A DNA stretch of 41,085 nt from a virus. The stretch is from positions 1 through 41,085 of IMG/VR virus record IMGVR_UViG_3300030098_000909, one strand, 5' to 3'. Below, in pieces: positions 5,035-29,156 of this stretch (position 1 is its first letter; each line of letters begins with the position of its first letter). The translations under genes were made by a program, and so were the position numbers. Under the pieces are notes generated by a model that saw only the letters and a list, made by a program, of their open reading frames with translations, was not told the DNA's origin and did no database searches.

Positions 5035-5266
5035 CCGTCAGGTCTTGTATGTCTTGCATCATGTGCACAAACACAGGGGTTTGTTCACCTACCCATGAGC
5101 CCAATACGTTAACGAAGAAAAAGTCTATAGCCTCGTCGTGACTCATGCCGTCACGCTCACAAAGTATGGCTATGCACTTATGGTAATCGTATGCTACCAA
5201 AGGCTCCTGACCAAACCGGTGACACACACCAATAAACGCTTCATCAAATCCATCTGCTTTCAACAT
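5015..5266 (-). CDS. conserved marine-phage protein of unknown function
   Basis: The 83-residue protein begins MLKADGFDEAFIGVCHRFG and continues QEPLVAYDYHKCIAILCERDGMSHDEA, ending with a GSWVGEQTPVF segment. I recognise this as a small family common in marine phage genomes, but no function is known to me. Its start abuts the primase stop and its end overlaps the helicase start. It appears mixed alpha/beta with no metal site. Confidence 0.8.
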   Translation of the reverse strand: MLKADGFDEAFIGVCHRFGQEPLVAYDYHKCIAILCERDGMSHDEAIDFFFVNVLGSWVGEQTPVFVHMMQDIQDLTDEEHGY

Positions 5267-6804
5267 TAGAACGGGGCCTCCTCTTCCCTGCCAAAGTCTG
5301 GCGTTTTAAGATCTACCTCAACAGACTCGTATGCAGGTATTTTCCATACCCTAATGGTGCGGTTTTTAATTCTAAGAACCACACTTTCACCACCTAAATC
5401 GCGAAGCCTCTGAGCCATCTTATAAGGCTTATACTCAAAAAACTTGTTACGTTTTAAAAACGCCTCAAAATCCTTTATTCTAAAGTAAGTCATGTTTGAC
5501 TCTTCGTCAGTCCAAGGACGTTTTAAAAGTATCTCTTCTTTATCCTTTGCGTTTTGTAAATGAGCGCAGAACTCCTCTAAATAGTCGTAGAACTGACCGT
5601 CTGTGCTGGCATCTTCTGCTACGTCGATGATTGCGCTTTCATTAGCGGTCATCTCTCGCATCAACCCACCTATGCGCGTCTCCCACGCCTGTTTACTGAC
5701 TGTGCGAGGCATTGTGTTAAGCTGCTCCATACAGGCTTTTTGAAAAGCCGTTTGGTTCATTAACCCGTCAGTATCTAATTCAAGCGGTTCGCCGTTTACA
5801 TCTACGAACCAAACAGGTGGAGTTGAGTCATATTTACGCAAGTTAGCTATGGCCGCGCCTTGTATGGCCGCACTAATGCCATGCTTCCTAGTCTGGCAAA
5901 GCTCCTTATTACAATGCGCGTTAATAGGCGCGTCACTACAACGATAAGCATAATCCTTCTTCTCAAGTTGCTTGGCCACTATGTTCACCTCGTTAAGAGG
6001 CAGCGGCGGTTCCAGATACTGCATATTATACGTAAGTATCTCTGACTCCCAACTATCAGGATACGCTTTGCGAAGATACACACCTATATTGAACAAACCG
6101 TTGTTACGCCCGCCCTCAGATATTTTGTTTTTAATTAAGAACTGTAAGCACGGCGGCCCGTCGTTCATACGTGACGTTTCAGGATCTTCCGTGATCTGAA
6201 GCTTAATTACCTGTTCTGGTGTCTGCTTATGCGTCTCGTAAAGCTCAAAGAACTCTTCAAGCGTAGCAGATGTGCCGTCGTCTTTGATTGCGTATCTTAA
6301 CCCGTCTTCTGCATCATAATACGGTAGGTTCAGAAAGTTACCTACGTCGTCGCGGTCAAGATGCAACTTAACCTGCTTTGGAAAGATTTCACTGCCGCCG
6401 TACCCCAAAGCGGCTGAAACCTGTTGCAGTGTTGACTGCATATCTTTTGCATCCACCCATTCTGTTGCGAACAGGAAGCAGTGTGCGCCGCCAGACTTGG
6501 AGCGGCACACCACAAGAGGTAATTTAAGCTTACGGATCTTCTCAACGAGTACTTTGTGATCTAACGGGTATTGGTCTACGTCAACACAACCCCAGACACA
6601 CTTATTGTCCTCATTGATCGGTATAATACCAATACCACGACCCTTACCAGCTAGATGCCCTTCCCACAGTTCCTTGGTCCGTGGTTCGCGCACGATGGCG
6701 GCACGTCCGGTATTCTTACCGTTCGCCTGCTGTTTCTCTACTTTATATGTGCCATACGCAAGACGCAGGCCATCAAAGATGGATGAAAACTTATCTACTG
6801 ACAT
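5266..6804 (-). CDS. TOTE-type archaeo-eukaryotic primase (AEP)
   Basis: A 512-residue primase. The AEP catalytic features are WGCVDVDQYP (Asp75, Asp77) and RSKSGGAHCFLF (His108 in the SGG.H motif), followed by a conserved FPKQ and LNLPYY region. This matches the AEP domain described in TOTE systems and in many phage replication modules. Around 288-306 there is a Cys cluster (YRC...HCNKELC) typical of the primase C-terminal region that may hold zinc or an Fe-S centre. The C-terminal third resembles a helical accessory domain. I start at the ATG at 6804 with GGGGA upstream rather than the in-frame TTG. A terminator lies just upstream. It likely primes DNA synthesis for the family A polymerase. 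Confidence 0.88.
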   Translation of the reverse strand: MSVDKFSSIFDGLRLAYGTYKVEKQQANGKNTGRAAIVREPRTKELWEGHLAGKGRGIGIIPINEDNKCVWGCVDVDQYPLDHKVLVEKIRKLKLPLVVCRSKSGGAHCFLFATEWVDAKDMQSTLQQVSAALGYGGSEIFPKQVKLHLDRDDVGNFLNLPYYDAEDGLRYAIKDDGTSATLEEFFELYETHKQTPEQVIKLQITEDPETSRMNDGPPCLQFLIKNKISEGGRNNGLFNIGVYLRKAYPDSWESEILTYNMQYLEPPLPLNEVNIVAKQLEKKDYAYRCSDAPINAHCNKELCQTRKHGISAAIQGAAIANLRKYDSTPPVWFVDVNGEPLELDTDGLMNQTAFQKACMEQLNTMPRTVSKQAWETRIGGLMREMTANESAIIDVAEDASTDGQFYDYLEEFCAHLQNAKDKEEILLKRPWTDEESNMTYFRIKDFEAFLKRNKFFEYKPYKMAQRLRDLGGESVVLRIKNRTIRVWKIPAYESVEVDLKTPDFGREEEAPF

Positions 6805-6817
6805 GTACGTTCCCCGC

Positions 6818-6866
6818 AAAAAAGATGAGGCGGCAAGGGCGTAGCAGCCAACACCCTTACCACCCC
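6818..6866 (-). terminator. intrinsic terminator between SSB-like and primase genes
   Basis: On the minus strand a 16-bp hairpin without mismatches (four G-T pairs; arms 6851-6866 and 6827-6842, loop of 8) is followed by ATC and six T. It sits within the operon, 6 bases after the SSB-like stop, so it should lower readthrough into primase, helicase and polymerase while leaving SSB-like expression high. Confidence 0.75.
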
Positions 6867-8350: not shown

Positions 8351-9802
8351 ATGATGCGGGAATATAAATTTAAAACTGAGCCGTTTGACCACCAGCGAAA
8401 AGTCTTGGAAGACTCGTGGGCCGAGGAGTTCTATGCGCTGTTCATGGAAATGGGTACAGGTAAATCCAAGGTGGCTATCGACACTATTGGTATGCTGTAT
8501 CAGGCCAAAAAAATAAACGCGGCACTTATACTGGCACCAAAAGGCGTTTATGACAACTGGGTTCAGGGTGAGATACCGGCGCACTTACCAGATGAGATAG
8601 AGCGCATGGTGGTGCGGTGGACGCCGTCTACTGCTAAAAAGTTTCAAGACGAGATGAAAGCGCTTGTGTATGAGCCGTTTGACGGCATGAAGATCTTTGT
8701 AATGAACATAGAGGCGCTGTCTACTGCGCGTGGTACGAAGGCCGCATATGCCTTTTTACGTAGAAACCCCAGTAACATAATGATTGTGGACGAAAGCACC
8801 ACTATCAAAAACCGTAAAGCCACACGCACCAAGAACGTGATGATGCTGGCCAAGGACGCTATGTATAAGCGCATCCTTACAGGGTCACCGGTTACTAAAT
8901 CACCTATGGATTTGTTCAGTCAGTGTATGTTTTTGTCACCGGCTGCGCTCAACTTCAACAGTTACTTTGCCTTTCAGAACAGGTACGCGATTGTGCAGAA
9001 GCGCACTATGGGCACTCGTGCATTTCAGGAGATCACCGGATACCGCAGATTGGATGAACTGAACCAGAAGCTAGACCGGTTTAGCAACCGCACTTTGAAA
9101 GAAGATTGCTTAGATCTGCCAGACAAAATGTACATTAGACGTGACGTTGCGCTGACGGACGAGCAGAAGAGCTTGTATACGCAGATGAAGAAGCTGGCTC
9201 TGGCCAAGCTGGAGAACGGTGAACTGGCTACAACAGCTAGTGTGCTGACACAGATCATGCGCCTGCAACAGATATGCTGCGGGCATTTGCAACCAGATGA
9301 GGGCGAGATACAGCCGGTGGAGAGCAATAGACTTAAAGAATTACTGGAGATCACAGATGAGCTACAGGGAAAAGCCATCATTTGGGCGTCGTATACATAC
9401 GACATTCAACAGATAGCTTCGGCCCTGCGCCACCGCTTTGGGCCCGAAGCGGTGGCAACCTATTATGGCGAAACCCCGCAGGATGAGCGTCAAGAAACGG
9501 TCAACCGCTTTCAGAACAAAGATAACCCGCTTCGTTTCTTTGTCGGTCAGCCGCGGACAGGTGGCTACGGGATCACGCTGACCGCGGCTAACACAATGAT
9601 ATATTACTCAAATAGCTATGATTTGGAAATACGGTTGCAGTCTGAAGACAGAGCACACCGTATAGGCCAAATCAATAAAGTGACATACATCGACTTGGTA
9701 TCGCCGCGCACTATTGACGAAAAGATCCTGAAGACCCTACGCAACAAAATAAATCTTGCCGGTCAAGTGCTTGGAGAGCAGGCTAGAGAGTGGTTGGTTT
9801 AG
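8351..9802 (+). CDS. SNF2-family (SF2) DNA helicase/translocase
   Basis: The only rightward gene, 483 residues. Helicase motifs are: Q-like FDHQ (12-15), Walker A MGTGKS (34-39), motif Ia LILAPKGVYDNW, motif II VDEST (Asp147, Glu148), motif III LTGSP, a C-terminal lobe with IIWASY, motif V region TGGYGITLTAANTMIYYSNSY (residues about 400-420) and motif VI QSEDRAHRIGQ near 434. The RAHRIGQ signature defines SNF2 ATPases, which move along double-stranded DNA. DEST replaces the usual DEAH/DEGH. Phage versions commonly lie in replication modules. Its stop overlaps the stop of the converging virion gene by three bases. Confidence 0.94.
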   Translation: MMREYKFKTEPFDHQRKVLEDSWAEEFYALFMEMGTGKSKVAIDTIGMLYQAKKINAALILAPKGVYDNWVQGEIPAHLPDEIERMVVRWTPSTAKKFQDEMKALVYEPFDGMKIFVMNIEALSTARGTKAAYAFLRRNPSNIMIVDESTTIKNRKATRTKNVMMLAKDAMYKRILTGSPVTKSPMDLFSQCMFLSPAALNFNSYFAFQNRYAIVQKRTMGTRAFQEITGYRRLDELNQKLDRFSNRTLKEDCLDLPDKMYIRRDVALTDEQKSLYTQMKKLALAKLENGELATTASVLTQIMRLQQICCGHLQPDEGEIQPVESNRLKELLEITDELQGKAIIWASYTYDIQQIASALRHRFGPEAVATYYGETPQDERQETVNRFQNKDNPLRFFVGQPRTGGYGITLTAANTMIYYSNSYDLEIRLQSEDRAHRIGQINKVTYIDLVSPRTIDEKILKTLRNKINLAGQVLGEQAREWLV

Positions 9803-23342: not shown

Positions 23343-23879
23343 TTATCCCGCTATCTCTGTTGCAGTGATGAAAGAGACGCCGCGTTCATAATAGGTATCA
23401 TCATTATCTTCCAACGTCCTATTAAGGAAAAAATTCCCGTCCTGTCTAGCTCTTATGCCCACCTTATAGGTAATCTGTGATGTGGTTGAGGGTGAGTCAA
23501 AAAAACTGTACATTCCACACTCTGGGGTCGATGCCGCGTTTTGATTTGCTTGACTATAGGTTTGTGTAATCATTGACACGCCGTTCGCTCGATCTCCAGC
23601 GGCGTCATGACCAAGTTTGGTTGTGTCCCTGTAAAAAAAGAAGATGTGGTTCCATGCGTTTGCAATAAGCCCATGCTCCCCAAAAATTTGAGCGTCTAAT
23701 CTAAAAACGCTACTTGTAGCTGTCGGGGTGATGTTCACTGTCAAATCTGTAAAAACAGTGTCTGCTAAACCAGTAAGTGAAATTGTATTTGTACTAGTAA
23801 ATTGAGTGCGTTGGACTTGCAAAATTTTGCCCGTGCTTCCCCCACCAATAAATGCCGCTAATTCTGCTGCTCTACTCAT
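23343..23879 (-). CDS. adhesin/fibre-tip protein, type E (copy 2)
   Basis: A 178-residue beta-rich protein: GKILQVQRTQFTSTNTISL, then VFTDLTVNITPTATSSVFRLDAQIFGEH. It shares with the protein at 25821-26318 the ILQ(V/I) start, the (T/A)xxITPT(A/D) block, aromatic/His-rich middle and the same length class. The family is common at the distal part of marine phage tails, and a trimeric receptor-binding head is a reasonable guess. Coupled by ATGA to the upstream type C gene. Confidence 0.65.
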   Translation of the reverse strand: MSRAAELAAFIGGGSTGKILQVQRTQFTSTNTISLTGLADTVFTDLTVNITPTATSSVFRLDAQIFGEHGLIANAWNHIFFFYRDTTKLGHDAAGDRANGVSMITQTYSQANQNAASTPECGMYSFFDSPSTTSQITYKVGIRARQDGNFFLNRTLEDNDDTYYERGVSFITATEIAG

Positions 23880-24250
23880 GCTAGTTCTCCAAATATGGAT
23901 ACAGAAATGTTTGCATTGTCTGTTTTAGTGCTGTCATCTCTAATAGTGCCTACTCGTATAGAACCAGCGGCTTTTGATGCAACGCTAATATCTAACCCAC
24001 CTCCTCCATCTGCATCTGCGGGAACAATAGGATGAGAATAATTTGCTGAACTTATACTTGAAGAAAGTGCGAATGTATAATCTCCTGTGCCATTATCTGT
24101 TGTGCTTGCAAGATTAAGTGAGGCATCTGCCGCTGCACCCGCATTTGAGTCAGCCCAACATTTACAGCTACCATTCGCAACAAAGCTGGTGGCAATACTG
24201 TTATTACCGCTGGCATCCTTTAGGGTGTTAACTCTAAGTTCGCTTGCCAT
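23876..24250 (-). CDS. adhesin-like protein, type C (copy 2)
   Basis: A 124-residue protein starting MASELRVNTLKD, with SFVANGSCKCWADS, a LNLASTTDNGTGDYTF block and the terminal FGELA. Compared with the type C gene at 27190-27579, it has the same (V/T)xFV(V/A)NGSxKxW signature and the same place as last gene of its triplet. Start is set at 24250 by the TAATG overlap with the upstream stop; a longer frame would run into the neighbour. Predicted beta fibre-tip or adhesin. Confidence 0.7.
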   Translation of the reverse strand: MASELRVNTLKDASGNNSIATSFVANGSCKCWADSNAGAAADASLNLASTTDNGTGDYTFALSSSISSANYSHPIVPADADGGGGLDISVASKAAGSIRVGTIRDDSTKTDNANISVSIFGELA

Positions 24251-24657
24251 TATGCTAGGTCCCCCATCATAAAGATGTTGGCTCTGTGCCAATTAACTAA
24301 AGTAGTCGTATTGCTACCACACTCAGCCCCCATTGCAGAGGTTGATATCAAAAACCCAGCAGATTGAACGGCAAGATGTGCTGTTCCACTTGCGTATTGA
24401 AACGGATTGGCCGCACCGCAACAGTTATCAGCGTCACTAAAAGCATTAGTCAAATTTACCTGTGGTTTACCCGTGCCTAAGTCTGTAAAGCTACTAGAAT
24501 TTAAGCTGTCATTGATGCTAGAAACAGTAGCAATCATTGCCCAAGCCTTTACAAGACCCTGTTCCAGAGATTGCGTAGCAGTAGCACCAACGGTAACAGT
24601 GACGGTTTTAGCCGTTGTATTACCTGTAAGAGTATCTACTTTAAGAATACTAGCCAT
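24250..24657 (-). CDS. adhesin-like protein, type B (copy 2)
   Basis: A 135-residue protein starting MASILKVDTLTGNTTAKTVTV, with VGATATQSLEQGLVKAWAMI, LNSSSFTDLGTGKPQVNLTN and end FMMGDLA. The VTVGA(T/S)ATQS(L/M) signature is shared with 27579-27989, also a middle gene. Several Cys residues (NCCGAANP, GAECG) are unusual for this group. TAATG overlaps on both sides. Function inferred from family resemblance to marine fibre-like proteins. Confidence 0.7.
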   Translation of the reverse strand: MASILKVDTLTGNTTAKTVTVTVGATATQSLEQGLVKAWAMIATVSSINDSLNSSSFTDLGTGKPQVNLTNAFSDADNCCGAANPFQYASGTAHLAVQSAGFLISTSAMGAECGSNTTTLVNWHRANIFMMGDLA

Positions 24658-25040
24658 TATGCGAGGTCTCCAAATACACAAATATTTGATTGTCCAGCAT
24701 CAGTTAGCGAGTTGCTAGAATTTCTATTTGACGTTCTAAACAAACTTGTTGTCCTATGACTTGCACTTGTAGTTCTAATACTAGCATTTCCTGATGCGCC
24801 ACTTTCTTCACCACTTTGTTCGCAAGTTGCATAAGTAGCATCACTCATATTATTGGTATAATTATAGGTGAATGAACCTGTCGCATTGTCTGTAAGTGAT
24901 GCAGTGTTTAAGGCGTTTTCTAAAGCAGGTGTAATGTTGTTTGAGTGTGCAAAAACTTTTACTGCTGCTTGCTTAGTCAACCCAACCGGACCAGTGCCAG
25001 CCTTATCTGCAATAGTGTCTACATTCAATACACTGGTCAT
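24657..25040 (-). CDS. adhesin-like protein, type A (copy 2)
   Basis: A 127-residue protein: MTSVLNVDTIADKAG, then TGPVGLTKQAAVKVFAHSN, LNTASLTDNATGSFTYNYTN, NNMSDATYATC and a Ser/Thr/Asn-rich variable part before CVFGDLA. LTKQ(A/S)A and TNNMS are shared with 27986-28378. GGAG lies before the ATG at 25040, which overlaps the upstream stop (ATGA). First gene of the second A-B-C triplet. Confidence 0.7.
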   Translation of the reverse strand: MTSVLNVDTIADKAGTGPVGLTKQAAVKVFAHSNNITPALENALNTASLTDNATGSFTYNYTNNMSDATYATCEQSGEESGASGNASIRTTSASHRTTSLFRTSNRNSSNSLTDAGQSNICVFGDLA

Positions 25041-25495
25041 ACGATACTCCAATAACCGTTAACAGTTACGGTTGCGTTCTGTGTGATAGGCCCAGCCGAT
25101 ACACCATTCTCATCGCTGTCAATTGTAATGTCTGCGCTGATGGTCTGCCCATTCAAACGGATGATGCTGTTGTTACCTTTGAACGGATAGCGTGTGTCAC
25201 TTTCTGTTTTAGTGTAACTGCTAGATATAGCAAAGGTGTCATAGACCACCATCTCAACAATGTCATTTAGGCTGGCGGCTGTAACTAATACAACGCTTGT
25301 GCCTGTTGTGGCTGCATAGTCAGTTCCGGGTTTGAGAAGCACCCCGTTTTGATACACGTCCATGTACAGGCTATCTGTATACTTTAGTGTCTTCGCATCG
25401 CCATCACTGCCACTGAATGTCGTTTGACTAGCTGTGGCTTGATATACGAAGCGGTTGCGAACACCAAACTCTGGAGATTTTCCTATGTATGGCAT
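25037..25495 (-). CDS. fibre protein, type D (copy 2)
   Basis: A 152-residue protein. The N-terminal beta domain contains TTFSGSDGDAKTLKY and DVYQNGVLLKPGTDYAA, a module frequent in phage fibres, and ASLNDIVEMVVYD. The C-terminal part reads IIRLNGQTISADITI, then AGPITQNATVTVNGYWSIV. The protein at 28375-28827 has the same order of a beta module followed by an NNQSLTVDTTI / GPFTVASGVTLTV repeat-like end. ATG at 25495 overlaps the preceding stop (TAATG). Leads the second adhesin cassette. Confidence 0.75.
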   Translation of the reverse strand: MPYIGKSPEFGVRNRFVYQATASQTTFSGSDGDAKTLKYTDSLYMDVYQNGVLLKPGTDYAATTGTSVVLVTAASLNDIVEMVVYDTFAISSSYTKTESDTRYPFKGNNSIIRLNGQTISADITIDSDENGVSAGPITQNATVTVNGYWSIV

Positions 25496-25821
25496 TATGG
25501 TTTCTCCGGCCACTTAACATCATCAAGTGATGTTGCAGTTTTTGTTATATCTCGTAAGTCTTGACGATACTTTTTTTGTGCATCCGTCATGGCAGGCGTA
25601 TCAGATGCGTCCCACCAATCTGTTTCTGATAATAATCTTGTACGCTCTAATCTTAAATCTTCAAGGCTGGCGGCTTTTTCTAACTCTGCTTGCTTTGTTG
25701 CCACAGTAGAAGCGTCCCAAGAAACCGTTTTTCCATCTTTATCAATAGCAACCGCATCGGACCCAGTGCCAGTTATGGAAACCACGTTATCATAGAGTTG
25801 ATATATTGCTTCGTGTTGCAT
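25495..25821 (-). CDS. tail assembly chaperone-like protein
   Basis: A 108-residue protein with a small N-terminal beta part, a helical AELEKAASLEDLRLERTRLL, then SETDWWDASDTPAMTDAQ and YRQDLRDIT...VKWPEKP. The RxxLLxxTDW...M...Q..YRQ.LRDI....DDV.WP pattern is the phage tail fibre assembly chaperone signature (XkdW/DUF4376-like group, from memory). It lies between adhesin genes, as such chaperones often do. Not expected in the mature virion. Confidence 0.8.
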   Translation of the reverse strand: MQHEAIYQLYDNVVSITGTGSDAVAIDKDGKTVSWDASTVATKQAELEKAASLEDLRLERTRLLSETDWWDASDTPAMTDAQKKYRQDLRDITKTATSLDDVKWPEKP

Positions 25822-26318
25822 TATTGTCCGATCTCCATGAGTGTTATACTGCTTGCGCCATTTAAATCAGTATCGCTTGATCCACCTCTGTTAATGTAAA
25901 TTGTCGCCGCACTGTTGTTATCTACATAGACCGTGTAATCTATTGCACTGGTAGTATTGTGGTCGTGGTAAATCTGACCACCAAAGTTTACCATTGTATA
26001 GTTGCTATATTGACCAGCCCTTGCTCCAAAAAAACGTGAACTAAATGCTGTGTCAGAACCAGTTTGTCCAATATCGTGATAAATCATGTGATAAGCACCG
26101 TAAGCCGCCCCTGTGTTATTTGATGAGGTGCAGAGACTATATGTCACAAGTATTTTGCTGGTCACATCAGTTGGTGTGATTGTAGCGGCTAATCCTGTTG
26201 CTTGTGGAGTGTTTGCACTTTGCGTCAAACTCTGCTCAGTTTCATAAAGCACATGGACTATTTGCAATATAGAACCTGATGCTGCTACGCCACCGCCGAT
26301 AATTTTAGTTAAGGGCAT
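25821..26318 (-). CDS. adhesin/fibre-tip protein, type E (copy 1)
   Basis: A 165-residue beta-rich protein: VAASGSILQIVHVLYETEQ, LAATITPTDVTSKILVTYSL, a Tyr/His-rich middle (YGAYHMIYHDIGQ) and GASSITLMEIGQ at the end. The ITPT..(T)SKILV and SSITLMEI blocks are typical of a common marine fibre-tip family. Related to 23343-23879. Probable receptor-facing module. Confidence 0.7.
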   Translation of the reverse strand: MPLTKIIGGGVAASGSILQIVHVLYETEQSLTQSANTPQATGLAATITPTDVTSKILVTYSLCTSSNNTGAAYGAYHMIYHDIGQTGSDTAFSSRFFGARAGQYSNYTMVNFGGQIYHDHNTTSAIDYTVYVDNNSAATIYINRGGSSDTDLNGASSITLMEIGQ

Positions 26319-26328
26319 AACCTATTCC

Positions 26329-26703
26329 TTATGCGTAAGGGCTGTCACCCAATACAGATGTATCCCAAGCAGCTTTGAGCTTTGCAATGGTGTCTGCGTC
26401 TGTAATTGCTTTTGCAGCAGGTGCATCACGCAAAGCCTTCTTCTTGTTGACAGAGTTAGTCTTTGCAGTTGCATCATCAGCTTCAAGAGCCTTCATGTAC
26501 ACAACATCCTCTGCATCAAGCAGTGGCTGACGTACTTCACGGATTTTGTCCTTAAAAATCTTTTTTGCTTCAGCCAAATCTTCAGAAATGACTTTGCCAC
26601 TCAGAGTCCATGCGCCTCTGAAGTGACGGTCTGATGGAACGGTAGCGGTTGAAGCATCAATCTGATTACCGTCCTTATCTACGATATATGTTGTTGGTGC
26701 CAT
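26329..26703 (-). CDS. tail assembly chaperone-like protein
   Basis: A 124-residue protein. VPSDRHFRGAWTLSGKVISEDL followed by EAKKIFKDKIREVRQPLLDAED, YMKALEADD and NKKKALRDA is the DR.FR.AW.(L/F)SG + helical pattern of tail fibre assembly chaperones in phages. AGGAG precedes its ATG. It lies between the two adhesin cassettes with two other chaperone-like genes, perhaps serving different fibres. Confidence 0.75.
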   Translation of the reverse strand: MAPTTYIVDKDGNQIDASTATVPSDRHFRGAWTLSGKVISEDLAEAKKIFKDKIREVRQPLLDAEDVVYMKALEADDATAKTNSVNKKKALRDAPAAKAITDADTIAKLKAAWDTSVLGDSPYA

Positions 26704-26713
26704 GAGGTTTCTC

Positions 26714-27190
26714 CTATGCGGCTACGGTTTCATCAGTGGCTAGCTCTTCACTAATCTTCCAAGCGTTGCGCCACTCTCTTGTCGCTGGAAGCTGTTCCTT
26801 GCGGCATATTACCATCTTTGGCTTATTACCGCTATCATAGTCTCGCCACACATGCTGTGGGCAGTCTTTCATAATCAAATACTCGATTGCTTGCTCTTCG
26901 GTCATCGCCTCGACAGGCTCAGTGTTATGGAGCAAATATCCTCTTGTGTGCTTTTTAAAGTCAGGCTGCGCTTCATCTTTGGCTAGTTCCCAGTATACTT
27001 GCACTGGTGGTAGGATGCCGCCCTGTAGCGCACAAGCCATCCAGTTAGGGTCAGGTACAAGTATCTTTGCACATTCGTCTATGCTGTCCTCATAGACTAC
27101 ACGATAGTCAGACTGTACACCGTCTAGGTTTTCTTTAGCCCAGCAGAGTCTGTCAAATAAGTGTGTGCCTTGAAATTCTGGTGTATCCAT
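26714..27190 (-). CDS. conserved protein with chaperone-like C-terminus
   Basis: A 158-residue soluble, acidic alpha/beta protein (LFDRLCWAKENLDGVQSDY; DPNWMACALQGGILPPVQVYW). Near the C-terminus it has PATREWRNAWKISEE, resembling the (D/R)xx(F/W)R.AW.(L/I)S motif of the adjacent chaperone. I recall homologs in marine phages without known function. A role in fibre assembly is inferred from position and motif. TAATG overlap with the type C adhesin gene downstream... its ATG overlaps that gene's stop. Confidence 0.6.
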   Translation of the reverse strand: MDTPEFQGTHLFDRLCWAKENLDGVQSDYRVVYEDSIDECAKILVPDPNWMACALQGGILPPVQVYWELAKDEAQPDFKKHTRGYLLHNTEPVEAMTEEQAIEYLIMKDCPQHVWRDYDSGNKPKMVICRKEQLPATREWRNAWKISEELATDETVAA

Positions 27191-27579
27191 TATGCTAAAT
27201 CTCCGTGAAATGAAACGCAGTTATGATTACAATCTTGCGTGGTTCCATCATCTTCTGTCTTAACTCTTTGTGTAGATGTTGTCCTTCGATTGTCGTGAGC
27301 TTCATCTCTAGTGCTTCTGTCCTGTAAAGAGTGACCCGTTGATGTACTTGCGGATATACAAAATTTTGCATTTCCAAAAGCACTAGTGACAGTTAAGGTG
27401 AAGTCACCCGCCGCCTCATCTGTTAATGACGAGTGATTTAAACTGTCATTTATTAAATTACTAGTGTACATTTGTGACTGTGACCACGCCTTTGCACTAC
27501 CATTCACCACAAACTGTGTATCAACTGACCCAGCGGTGCTGTGTTCTAGGGTATCTGCTTTTATCTTTCCTAGTGCCAT
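27190..27579 (-). CDS. adhesin-like protein, type C (copy 1)
   Basis: A 129-residue protein starting MALGKIKADTLEHSTAG, with TQFVVNGSAKAWSQS, LNHSSLTDEAAGDFTLTVTS and a hydrophilic, charged C-terminal half (RSTRDEAHDNRRTTSTQRV) ending FHGDLA. The DNA of the last codons is identical over 18 bases with the end of the type A gene at 27986. Last gene of the first triplet. Confidence 0.7.
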   Translation of the reverse strand: MALGKIKADTLEHSTAGSVDTQFVVNGSAKAWSQSQMYTSNLINDSLNHSSLTDEAAGDFTLTVTSAFGNAKFCISASTSTGHSLQDRSTRDEAHDNRRTTSTQRVKTEDDGTTQDCNHNCVSFHGDLA

Positions 27580-28005
27580 TACGCAATATCCCCCGCCATC
27601 ATAAAGGTAACATCTTCATCAGAACCGCCACTTATAACTCTAAAATGTTTGGTTGAAGTAGATTGCGTCCCATCATTTACTATTGACCTAGCACCAGTAG
27701 TTGTACCGTCTCTGTTTCCAGCATATCCCGCTTGTGCTGTTGCATCATTCGAAAAGTTATTAGTAAAATTTAATTCAAATTGAAGCGCACCACCATCACC
27801 AATCGAAGAAACATTAAGGCTATCGCCTACACCAGAGTTTCTTTTTGTTGGTGGGTTTGTGTCATCTATGCTAATCCAAACTTTCAATAACCCTTCTTGC
27901 ATAGACTGTGTAGCACTAGCACCAACCGTCACGGTGATGTCATTAGCAGTGCTTACGCCAGTGAGTTTGTTTGTTTTTACCTCACTCATGCTAAATCTCC
28001 GTGAA
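27192..28005 (-). repeat. 18-bp direct repeats at adhesin gene ends (27192-27209, 27988-28005)
   Basis: atgctaaatctccgtgaa is found identically at the 3' ends of the type C and type A genes of the first cassette; it encodes HGDLA and the stop on the minus strand. Other adhesin genes have diverged versions of this end. The copies flank the type B gene. Confidence 0.8.
27579..27989 (-). CDS. adhesin-like protein, type B (copy 1)
   Basis: A 136-residue protein starting MSEVKTNKLTGVSTAND, with ITVTVGASATQSMQEGLLKVW, a LNVSSIGDGGALQFELNFTN block and end FMMAGDIA. The signature residues 18-32 match the type B gene of the other cassette. Stop and start codons overlap neighbours on both sides. Predicted fibre-tip or adhesin subunit. 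Confidence 0.7.
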   Translation of the reverse strand: MSEVKTNKLTGVSTANDITVTVGASATQSMQEGLLKVWISIDDTNPPTKRNSGVGDSLNVSSIGDGGALQFELNFTNNFSNDATAQAGYAGNRDGTTTGARSIVNDGTQSTSTKHFRVISGGSDEDVTFMMAGDIA

Positions 28006-28378
28006 CATTAATAGTCAAATAATTGTCTTCACTTGAAGTATTTTGATATTGACTTGCAGTGGTAAAAGACCCCGAAGCATATGCAGATGATGCAGAAAAG
28101 CGACTATACCGAGAATTACTTCCGTTTAATCCTGTATAGTGAGAATTTGTAATAGATGCATATTGAGTACTAGACATATTATTAGTAAGTGATGTTGAAA
28201 AAATTCCTGTGCTAGTATCACTAAAACTGCTTACGTTGAAGGTGTCACCACCAGTATTTGCACCAAGTTTATCACCTCTTTGGTCAAACACACCAAACGC
28301 CTTTGCCGCACTTTGCTTAGTCAGCGTAGCCGCACCACCGGCGGTGCTTTGGATTGTATCTGCTTTTAATGTACTCAT
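27986..28378 (-). CDS. adhesin-like protein, type A (copy 1)
   Basis: A 130-residue protein: MSTLKADTIQSTAGGAATLT, KQSAAKAFGVFDQ, FNVSSFSDTSTGIFSTSLTN, NMSSTQYASITNS, then a Ser/Tyr/Asn-rich variable segment and VHGDLA. I recognise the STLKADTIQST..GGAATLTKQSAAKA opening as a recurrent marine phage fibre-like family. ATG overlaps the upstream type D stop (ATGA). Confidence 0.75.
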   Translation of the reverse strand: MSTLKADTIQSTAGGAATLTKQSAAKAFGVFDQRGDKLGANTGGDTFNVSSFSDTSTGIFSTSLTNNMSSTQYASITNSHYTGLNGSNSRYSRFSASSAYASGSFTTASQYQNTSSEDNYLTINVHGDLA

Positions 28379-28827
28379 AGCGTCACCAACGTCCCGCCAG
28401 ACTCGACTGTAAGAGTTACACCAGAAGCCACAGTAAACGGACCAGTTACGTTAGCGTTTTCTGTGGCTAGGATAGTGGTGTCTACAGTTAGGCTTTGATT
28501 GTTTGTGCGGAAGATACCGCCGGACTTAAAGTTGCCTCTATTTTCTGTGGCAGGTGAGATGGATCCACTGGTCACACCCATGTACATAACAAAGATATTA
28601 TTGCCAGAGTTACTTGATGGCGCTTCATCAAACGTAAGAGTGGCTCCGTCAGGTACGGTATATGATCCAGTTGGCTCTTGAACCACCCCATCTACGGAAA
28701 CGACTATATCTTCTGCACGAACCGTCTGATTAAGAGTAAAGGTGGTAGTGCTTCCATCACCACTAAACTCCTGTCTTGTAGGTCTGGCCTGAAAACTAGG
28801 CACTATAGTATTGCCAAGAAGAGGCAT
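28375..28827 (-). CDS. fibre protein, type D (copy 1)
   Basis: A 150-residue beta protein: RQEFSGDGSTTTFTLNQTV, VSVDGVVQEPTGSYTV, FDEAPSSNSGNNIFVMYMG, then FRTNNQSLTVDTTI and GPFTVASGVTLTVESGGTLV. The first part is a module seen in many phage fibres, the second a short stem or capping element. It heads the first adhesin cassette. Related in layout to 25037-25495. Confidence 0.78.
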   Translation of the reverse strand: MPLLGNTIVPSFQARPTRQEFSGDGSTTTFTLNQTVRAEDIVVSVDGVVQEPTGSYTVPDGATLTFDEAPSSNSGNNIFVMYMGVTSGSISPATENRGNFKSGGIFRTNNQSLTVDTTILATENANVTGPFTVASGVTLTVESGGTLVTL

Positions 28828-29156
28828 CAGGTGATCTCCATTATACTCGCTACAGTATCTAAGCTGTTTGCCGTGTCACTTTGCACAATCAAGCTATGCC
28901 CTGTTTCCATGACAATCTTGTTACCTGCCATATATTCAAAACTAGATGCCGCAGGAATCGGTATGTCTTTTGCCAAAAACACCATATCGCCAGCGTTTAG
29001 CTTTATGTCAGCAGTGATTTGGGCAGATGAAGTGTTCGCCAGAGTCAGACCAATAACAACGGTAGTGGTGGAACTTGGCACGGTGTAAACAGCCATGTCT
29101 GAATTGGCACTGGCTGTTCCACCGTTGAACACCTTATTTTTAAAGGTATTAGCCAT
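28827..29156 (-). CDS. small virion/fibre-associated protein
   Basis: A 109-residue beta protein (VYTVPSSTTTVVIGLTLANTS, LNAGDMVFLAKDIPIPAAS, KIVMETGHSLIVQSDTAN). The pattern resembles jelly-roll accessory domains that recur near phage fibres. GGAG-type site AGGAGTAGAAC before the ATG. No function known. Confidence 0.65.
   Translation of the reverse strand: MANTFKNKVFNGGTASANSDMAVYTVPSSTTTVVIGLTLANTSSAQITADIKLNAGDMVFLAKDIPIPAASSFEYMAGNKIVMETGHSLIVQSDTANSLDTVASIMEIT

What the first reader, a model, noticed from the sequence alone, without database searches (positions are those of the whole stretch)
23343..28827. Four-gene adhesin cassette duplicated in fixed order (D-A-B-C twice)
Eight small fibre-like genes fall into four types, each with its own signature, and the order D-A-B-C is the same in both sets. 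A type E gene follows each set, and chaperone-like genes sit between. This looks like block duplication, or parallel acquisition, of an entire receptor-binding module. It would give the phage two sets of tips with separate evolution, or a hetero-oligomeric tip in which A, B and C each have a place. I know the single families from marine phages, but not a description of the ordered duplication.
Basis: partly seen in the sequence, partly recalled or inferred. Interest (0 to 1): 0.85.

Follow-up and report, generated by a model that had tools for sequence, protein, structure and literature searches.

The report
Slot-addressed plug-in phage adhesin array
A common group of ocean viruses of bacteria carries about eight tiny adhesion genes in a fixed order, each made of a position-specific "plug" and a hypervariable tip that recombination has moved between plugs, which would let the virus mix and match what it can grip.

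Summary
In this HMO-2011-type marine podovirus, D-A-B-C occurs twice. A, B and C are paralogues (phrog_11355). What is duplicated is a docking ladder, not whole receptor-binding proteins. Each protein is a ~28-40-residue N-terminal "address", specific to its slot, plus a hypervariable ~95-residue beta-sandwich tip. Nearest neighbours by address fall in the same slot 94% of the time and the same letter 99%; by tip, 22% (shuffled 17%). In 44 loci (37 contigs) holding all six core addresses, each occurs exactly once. 43 keep the order A1 B1 C1 (X) A2 B2 C2 (Y); the one exception keeps the full set, permuted. Near-identical tips occur behind different addresses, with DNA identity jumping at the address/tip boundary. 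Unrelated tips (S74, Peptidase_G2, E) sit behind the same addresses. D2 models as a T7 gp17-like tail anchor. Distant phages (17-lineage clade) have one D-A-B-C-H1-H2 cassette, so duplication is supported. Best reading: a branched receptor-binding array with exchangeable tips; physical docking is inferred. The A:B:C heterotrimer is disfavoured. 'Type E after each set' is incidental: slots X and Y hold E tips here. New variant of multi-adhesin branched complexes.

The parts
28375..28827 (-). D1: anchor of set 1 (weak T7 gp17-like N-terminal domain plus conserved C-terminal cap)
   Evidence: PF03906 E=0.0015, below cut-off; phrog_18673 tail fiber; always first in set 1
27986..28378 (-). A1 plug: address MSTLKADTIQS..AKAF (28295-28378) plus hypervariable tip
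   Evidence: phrog_11355; address/tip split
27579..27989 (-). B1 plug: address MSEVKTNKLTG..LKVW (27876-27989) plus tip
   Evidence: phrog_11355; split
27190..27579 (-). C1 plug: address MALGKIKADTLEHSTAG..AKAW (27484-27579) plus tip
   Evidence: phrog_11355; split
26714..27190 (-). H1: conserved ~158 aa protein, likely tip chaperone/assembly factor, encoded once
   Evidence: 84-98% conserved in the near loci and always after C1; follows F tips even when fused in a long fibre; function inferred
26329..26703 (-). H2: conserved ~124 aa protein, likely assembly chaperone, encoded once
   Evidence: phrog_20196, weak tail fiber assembly hit; shares LPxxRxFRxAW-like motif with H1 C-terminus
25821..26318 (-). 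Slot X plug: address MPLTKIIGGG plus type E tip (E1)
   Evidence: X address shared by F, E and S74 tips in relatives
25495..25821 (-). H3: tail assembly chaperone partner of the E tip
   Evidence: PF16778 Phage_tail_APC E=1.3e-11
25037..25495 (-). D2: T7 gp17-like tail anchor of set 2 plus C-terminal cap
   Evidence: AlphaFold model matches LME-1 9efk, HRP29 8es4, T7 gp17 7boz/7ey9; residues 11-92 match tail-fibre starts of pelagiphages and roseophages
24657..25040 (-). A2 plug: address MTSVLNVDTIADKAG..VKVF (24951-25040) plus tip
   Evidence: address low-confidence, tip 8-stranded beta sandwich in the model; tip 73% identical to a B2 tip in L049
24250..24657 (-). B2 plug: address MASILKVDTLTG..VKAW (24541-24657) plus tip
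   Evidence: phrog_11355; split
23876..24250 (-). C2 plug: address MASELRVNTLKDASGNNS..CKCW (24155-24250) plus tip
   Evidence: phrog_11355 and phrog_3484; split
23343..23879 (-). Slot Y plug: address MSRAAELAAFIGGG plus type E tip (E2)
   Evidence: phrog_6942 tail fiber, C-terminal part; Y address MS(K/R)AAEL in 23 of 24 Y genes

Best explanation
The locus encodes a branched, multi-adhesin receptor-binding apparatus for a short-tailed phage. D1 and D2 are truncated fibres: a T7 gp17-like domain docks on the tail and a conserved C-terminal cap forms a hub. Up to eight small adhesins (A1, B1, C1, X, A2, B2, C2, Y) each carry a short N-terminal address unique to one docking position and a self-contained, probably homotrimeric, beta-rich tip. 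H1/H2 (for F tips) and H3 (for E tips) are assembly chaperones. An ancestral ladder D-A-B-C-H1-H2(-Y) was duplicated as D-A-B-C. Because the address/tip junction and the tip's last codons are conserved in all slots, recombination can move a tip to another address, giving combinatorial variation in host recognition. Shown: gene order, address/tip split, slot specificity, one of each core address per genome, tip exchange, tip-type substitution, purifying selection on addresses, the modelled fold class of D2 and the F tip. Inferred: address docking, D cap as hub, homotrimer state, chaperone role, receptor binding.
For: Address/tip split: nearest neighbours by address fall in the same slot 94% and same letter 99%; by tip 22% and 40%, against 17% and 31% in shuffles. 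Exactly one of each core address in 44 loci, including L019, where B-C(-Y) segments traded places. Tips 88-98% identical behind different addresses, with DNA identity rising from 40-60% to 80-100% at the junction, e.g. C1 of L028 vs A2 of L027. Against relative L010, scaffold genes align full length at 87-92% while A1-C2 and Y align only over their first 35-89 bases. Unrelated tips behind the right address: S74 in B1 and X, Peptidase_G2 in B1, E in B1, C, X, Y. Address pN/pS 0.14-0.32. D2 fold like T7 gp17 N-terminus; tip fold weakly like parts of tailspikes. Distant phages have one ladder whose address letters are 100% consistent among themselves. F tip fused to a long fibre in SI2, followed by H1/H2.
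Against: No virion structure, interaction or host-range data. The address is low-confidence in the monomer model (pLDDT 53-62), so docking is not shown. Tip nearest neighbours show a small but significant slot bias (22 vs 17%, 40 vs 31% by letter), so tips are not fully free. Loci were found through H1 or D1, which favours intact cassettes. Address HMM calls in incomplete loci include oddities such as A1 A1 B2, which may be miscalls or variants. Most relatives are uncultured contigs.
Confidence: 0.72

Rival explanations
1. A, B and C form one heterotrimer per set (each a different chain of a trimeric fibre tip), so three genes are kept because a fibre has three chains.
For: Exactly three plugs between D1 and H1 in 59 of 61 near loci; often three in distant ones.
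Against: Slot B can hold an S74 or Peptidase_G2 fibre, and slots B and C an E tip; S74-type fibres are homotrimers (general knowledge). Tips in one cassette are no more alike than between phages (0.254 vs 0.249) and move singly. Some distant cassettes have four F genes. In SI2 and others a single fused fibre carries one F tip.
Confidence: 0.08
2. The conserved 5' ends are only recombination or translation-start sequence (the crossover arms), not docking addresses; slot identity is an accident of descent.
For: Junction and tip ends are conserved across slots, as recombination arms would be; genes overlap at start codons.
Against: Addresses differ between slots yet are kept within slots at protein level (pN/pS 0.14-0.32 with pS about 0.5). 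Each address is present once even after the L019 rearrangement. Unrelated tip families carry the right address.
Confidence: 0.12
3. Linear stacking: D, A, B and C join end to end in gene order as segments of one fibre, rather than branching off a hub.
For: Fixed gene order; order often follows assembly in fibres (general knowledge).
Against: All F tips share the same invariant C-terminus (GDLA), so no slot-specific socket for the next protein is visible at the tip end; tips of unrelated fold are tolerated in the middle slot B.
Confidence: 0.15
4. Tips are diversified by a diversity-generating retroelement, not by exchange.
For: Hypervariable C-terminal region.
Against: No reverse transcriptase found in the 41 kb record, with working controls; near-identical tips occur behind different addresses with sharp junctions. 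The record may be partial.
Confidence: 0.03

Closest known systems
Branched tailspike complex of Ackermannviridae (TSP1-4) and multi-RBP Klebsiella phages (PMC11414711)
   Same: Several adhesins per virion, conserved N-terminal assembly parts, variable C-terminal receptor parts, neighbouring genes, exchange by recombination at conserved 5' ends proposed.
   Different: Those use large tailspikes linked by T4 gp10-like XD domains; here ~130 aa proteins with ~28-40 residue addresses, no Pfam-recognised XD domain, and an ordered ladder of up to eight slots duplicated as a block.
T7 gp17-type tail fibre; truncated anchor as in phage HRP29 (8es4)
   Same: D2 model matches T7 gp17 N-terminus and an HRP29 tail protein; pelagiphage and roseophage fibres carry the same domain.
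   Different: D ends after a ~50-residue cap; receptor-binding parts are separate genes. HMO-2011-type relative CRP-1 has a single ~1080 aa fibre instead.
Puniceispirillum phage HMO-2011 (tail fiber genes gp28-gp41)
   Same: Same region, H1 84% identical, D-F-(E,k)-F-H-h-X-d-F-?-k-F layout.
   Different: Annotated only as multiple tail fiber proteins; the 2022 survey of this phage group does not mention tail fibers. No slot or address description found.
Metaviromic islands in marine phages (PMC3909814)
   Same: Tail fibre and C1q genes are among the most variable, swapped parts of marine phage genomes.
   Different: Described at read-recruitment level; no per-slot addresses or cross-slot tip exchange in the passages read.
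Pam3 simplified fibre gp24 with chaperone gp25 (PMC9608196)
   Same: Short trimeric fibre with N-terminal docking part, receptor-binding distal part and dedicated chaperone.
   Different: One fibre type, on a myovirus baseplate; no array.

Membership tests
Branched multi-RBP complex (Ackermannviridae / G7C kind) | Several RBPs in one genome with conserved N-terminal and variable C-terminal parts | tested here: met
Branched multi-RBP complex (Ackermannviridae / G7C kind) | T4 gp10-like XD branching domains | tested here: not met
   No Pfam match to such a domain in the D, A1, B1, C1, E or H proteins scanned
Branched multi-RBP complex (Ackermannviridae / G7C kind) | Physical assembly of all RBPs on one virion | not testable with these tools
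   needs virion structure or proteomics
T7 gp17-type tail fibre | gp17 N-terminal tail-docking domain | tested here: met
   D2 fold match to 7boz, 7ey9, 9efk, 8es4; D1 PF03906 only below cut-off
T7 gp17-type tail fibre | Receptor-binding C-terminus in the same chain | tested here: not met
   D is 150-152 aa and ends in a conserved cap
phrog_11355 tail fiber family | Profile match over the full protein | tested here: met
   A1, B1, C1, A2, B2, C2: E 2e-17 to 2e-6
Phage_tail_APC chaperone (PF16778) | Match above gathering score | tested here: met
   H3 44.5 bits, cut-off 26.6; H1 and H2 do not match
Diversity-generating retroelement target | Reverse transcriptase nearby | tested here: not met
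   PF00078 absent from the record, controls ring; record may be partial

The most novel reading that the evidence does not exclude
A protein 'address code': each virion displays up to eight different adhesins, one per coded docking position on two small T7-type anchors, and tips of any fold can be plugged into any position, so host range evolves by re-plugging tips rather than by changing fibres.
Probability: 0.5. Interest if true: 0.85.

Novelty: new variant of a known kind. Interest (0 to 1): 0.74.

Why it matters
[quoted passage not shown] If right, the locus is a natural modular display system with short docking tags. It explains why many tiny 'tail fiber' genes stand in a row in these genomes, makes host-range evolution readable as tip-by-slot combinations in metagenomes, and gives a testable rule: one of each address per genome, any tip in any slot.

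Tried and rejected
Heterotrimer A:B:C (see rivals). Retroelement diversification: no RT. 'E belongs to each cassette': E is one of several tips in slots X and Y, also found in B and C. Whole-protein trees as the test of duplication: replaced by separate address and tip analyses, because tips recombine. Search of viral contigs with the F alignment failed, too variable; search with SI2 H1 found no relatives. A tree test holding sets 1 and 2 together without the six intermediate contigs is rejected (p 2e-43), because those contigs lie inside that clade. The first cassette-tree script, a shuffle script (second half) and one Pfam call with wrong coordinates failed and were repeated or dropped.
Full report
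What is there. The window is a 41 kb record of a marine podovirus related to Puniceispirillum phage HMO-2011. All genes of interest lie on the - strand, overlapping by 1-4 bases or spaced by up to 10. Read in the direction of transcription the order is D1 A1 B1 C1 H1 H2 E1 H3 D2 A2 B2 C2 E2. A, B and C of both sets match one PHROG, phrog_11355 'tail fiber protein'. H3 is a Phage_tail_APC chaperone (PF16778). H1 and H2 have no named family with a function.

Conservation of the order. A search with H1 gave 80 viral loci; with HMO-2011 and the window that makes 82 sequences. Between D1 and H1, 59 of 61 readable loci have exactly three plug genes, 49 of them three F (A/B/C-family) genes. In the rest a slot is filled by another protein, and L019 has four F. 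A second search with D1, which does not require H1, gave more loci. Pooling all loci and classifying proteins by their first residues, 44 loci from 37 distinct contigs hold all six addresses A1, B1, C1, A2, B2, C2. Each occurs exactly once, and in 43 of 44 in that order, usually with X before A2 and Y after C2. The 37 is my count after removing contigs fetched twice; it includes the window and L167, which is identical to it over this region.

Address and tip. Aligned F proteins split at an 'AKAW'-like motif. Before it, proteins in the same slot are 62-71% identical (45% in X). A1-A2, B1-B2 and C1-C2 are 45, 58 and 38% identical; other A/B/C pairs are 21-31%. After it, mean identity is 24-30% whatever the slots. 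Nearest-neighbour tests give the same slot for 94% and the same letter for 99% of addresses, against 22% and 40% for tips. Shuffling slot labels within loci gives 17% and 31% for tips, so a weak slot bias remains (p 0.0125 and 0.001). Address codons show pN/pS 0.14-0.32 with pS around 0.5, which is protein-level constraint and not just conserved start-site DNA.

Tips move between slots. Pairs of tips from different phages are 88-98% identical behind clearly different addresses: A1 of L026 and A2 of L031; C1 of L028 and A2 of L027; C1 of L068 and A2 of L077; C1 of L034 and X of L033. At DNA level identity is 40-60% in the address and jumps to 80-100% at the junction. The window's own A2 tip is 73% identical to the B2 tip of L049, with 23% identical addresses. 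Against relative L010, D1, H1, H2, D2 and the tail protein next door align over their full length at 87-92%. A1, B1, C1, A2, B2, C2 and Y align only over their first 88, 45, 89, 71, 36, 83 and 35 bases, and X not at all. The junction and the final GDLA are conserved across slots, so they could serve as recombination arms (inference).

Other tips use the same addresses. In L014 and L059 slot B1 holds an S74 chaperone-type fibre and in L077 a Peptidase_G2 fibre, all starting MSEVKTNK; in L036 slot X holds an S74 fibre starting MALTKV. E tips occur in slots X, Y, B1 and C. By position, 42 of 46 non-F proteins in slot X start M(A/P)LT or MALS, and 23 of 24 in slot Y start MS(K/R)AAEL or similar. 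E1 and E2 of the window are therefore simply the tips that slots X and Y hold here.

L019 is a natural test. Its gene order is A1 B2 C2 Y H1 H2 X D2 A2 B1 C1: the B-C segments, with Y, have changed places between sets. The full set of addresses is still present once. If docking is set by the address in trans this should be harmless, as observed.

Structure. The AlphaFold model of A2 (113 sequences) has a low-confidence address (pLDDT 53-62) and a confident eight-stranded tip. The best PDB matches are parts of trimeric tailspikes (phiAB6, Pam1, phi297), at weak E-values of 0.008 and above. Among viral models it matches small proteins and long fibres of cyanophages. The D2 model (mean pLDDT 75) matches tail-docking domains: LME-1, HRP29, T7 gp17, CBA120 TSP4. 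D2 residues 11-92 also match tail fibres of pelagiphages and roseophages. The end of D is a conserved cap found before A-B-C even when the start of D differs. I infer that it is the hub.

Origin. Microcystis phage Mel-JY33 and Nostoc phage Nsp-JY18 have a single D-A-B-C-H1-H2 cassette. A scan with Mel-JY33 H1 found many more: 28 of the distant loci read D-F-F-F-H-h. Their addresses fall into A, B and C classes without error among themselves. Against the near set, A and C find their own letter (17/17 and 15/17) but B does not. On a tree of D cap plus three addresses, these 17 lineages are separate from a 100/100 clade holding set 1, set 2 and six intermediate contigs. So the A-B-C ladder probably predates the duplication, which came later, in the HMO-2011-like branch. 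The tree rests on 160 columns and assumes the pieces travel together. In 'Dunaliella virus' SI2 and several contigs an F tip is fused to a long fibre and still followed by H1 and H2, which ties H1/H2 to F tips.

Mechanism, shown and inferred. Shown by sequence: order, one address each, split, exchange, substitution, selection on the address. Shown by model: D2 anchor fold, tip fold class. Inferred: addresses are docking peptides, D cap is the hub, tips are homotrimers that bind receptors, H1/H2/H3 are chaperones. Because tips of unrelated families fit the same slot and tips in a cassette show no mutual similarity (0.254 against 0.249), I prefer separate homo-oligomeric spikes to an A:B:C trimer.

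Compared with what is known. Multi-adhesin branched complexes with conserved N-termini and swapped C-termini are known in Ackermannviridae and Klebsiella phages (PMC11414711). Variable fibre and C1q genes in marine phages are known as metaviromic islands (PMC3909814). The HMO-2011-type survey does not mention tail fibers (PMC9038755) and the RCA phage paper only notes fibre variation (PMC6918029). I found no description of slot addresses, the ordered duplication or cross-slot tip exchange; the library lacks many subscription papers, so this is not proof of novelty. I file it as a new variant of a known kind.

Limits. Relatives were found through H1 or D1, which favours loci with intact cassettes; related phages such as CRP-1 use one long fibre. 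Some address calls in incomplete loci are odd. Nothing here shows protein contacts.

Noticed in passing
L019:8481-13062: Natural permutation of the ladder: B2, C2 and Y addresses sit in set 1 and B1, C1 in set 2, with each address still present once.
   Followed up: yes
window 26714-27190 and 26329-26703: The C-terminus of H1 (LPATREWRNAW) and the N-terminus of H2 (VPSDRHFRGAW) share a motif, suggesting related binding segments.
   Followed up: no
L084:4433-5908: The phage recorded as 'Dunaliella viridis virus SI2' (host given as a green alga) has a tailed-phage fibre with a fused F tip followed by H1 and H2; the stated host is doubtful.
   Followed up: partly
L105, L142, L150, L151 after H2: A D2-type anchor start lies next to a single cassette and, in L142 and L151 at least, another unrelated gene stands where A2-C2 would be.
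   Followed up: partly
window 8351-9802, + strand: A 483 aa SNF2-type helicase gene on the strand opposite to its neighbours (PF00176 and Helicase_C).
   Followed up: partly
window 5266-6819: Primase-like protein matching the archaeo-eukaryotic primase domain of TOTE conflict systems (PF22548).
   Followed up: no
window 28827-29156: Small gene before D1, at the same place in relatives, ending in a 'SIMEIT'-like strand; phrog_1276 and phrog_26609, function unknown.
   Followed up: no
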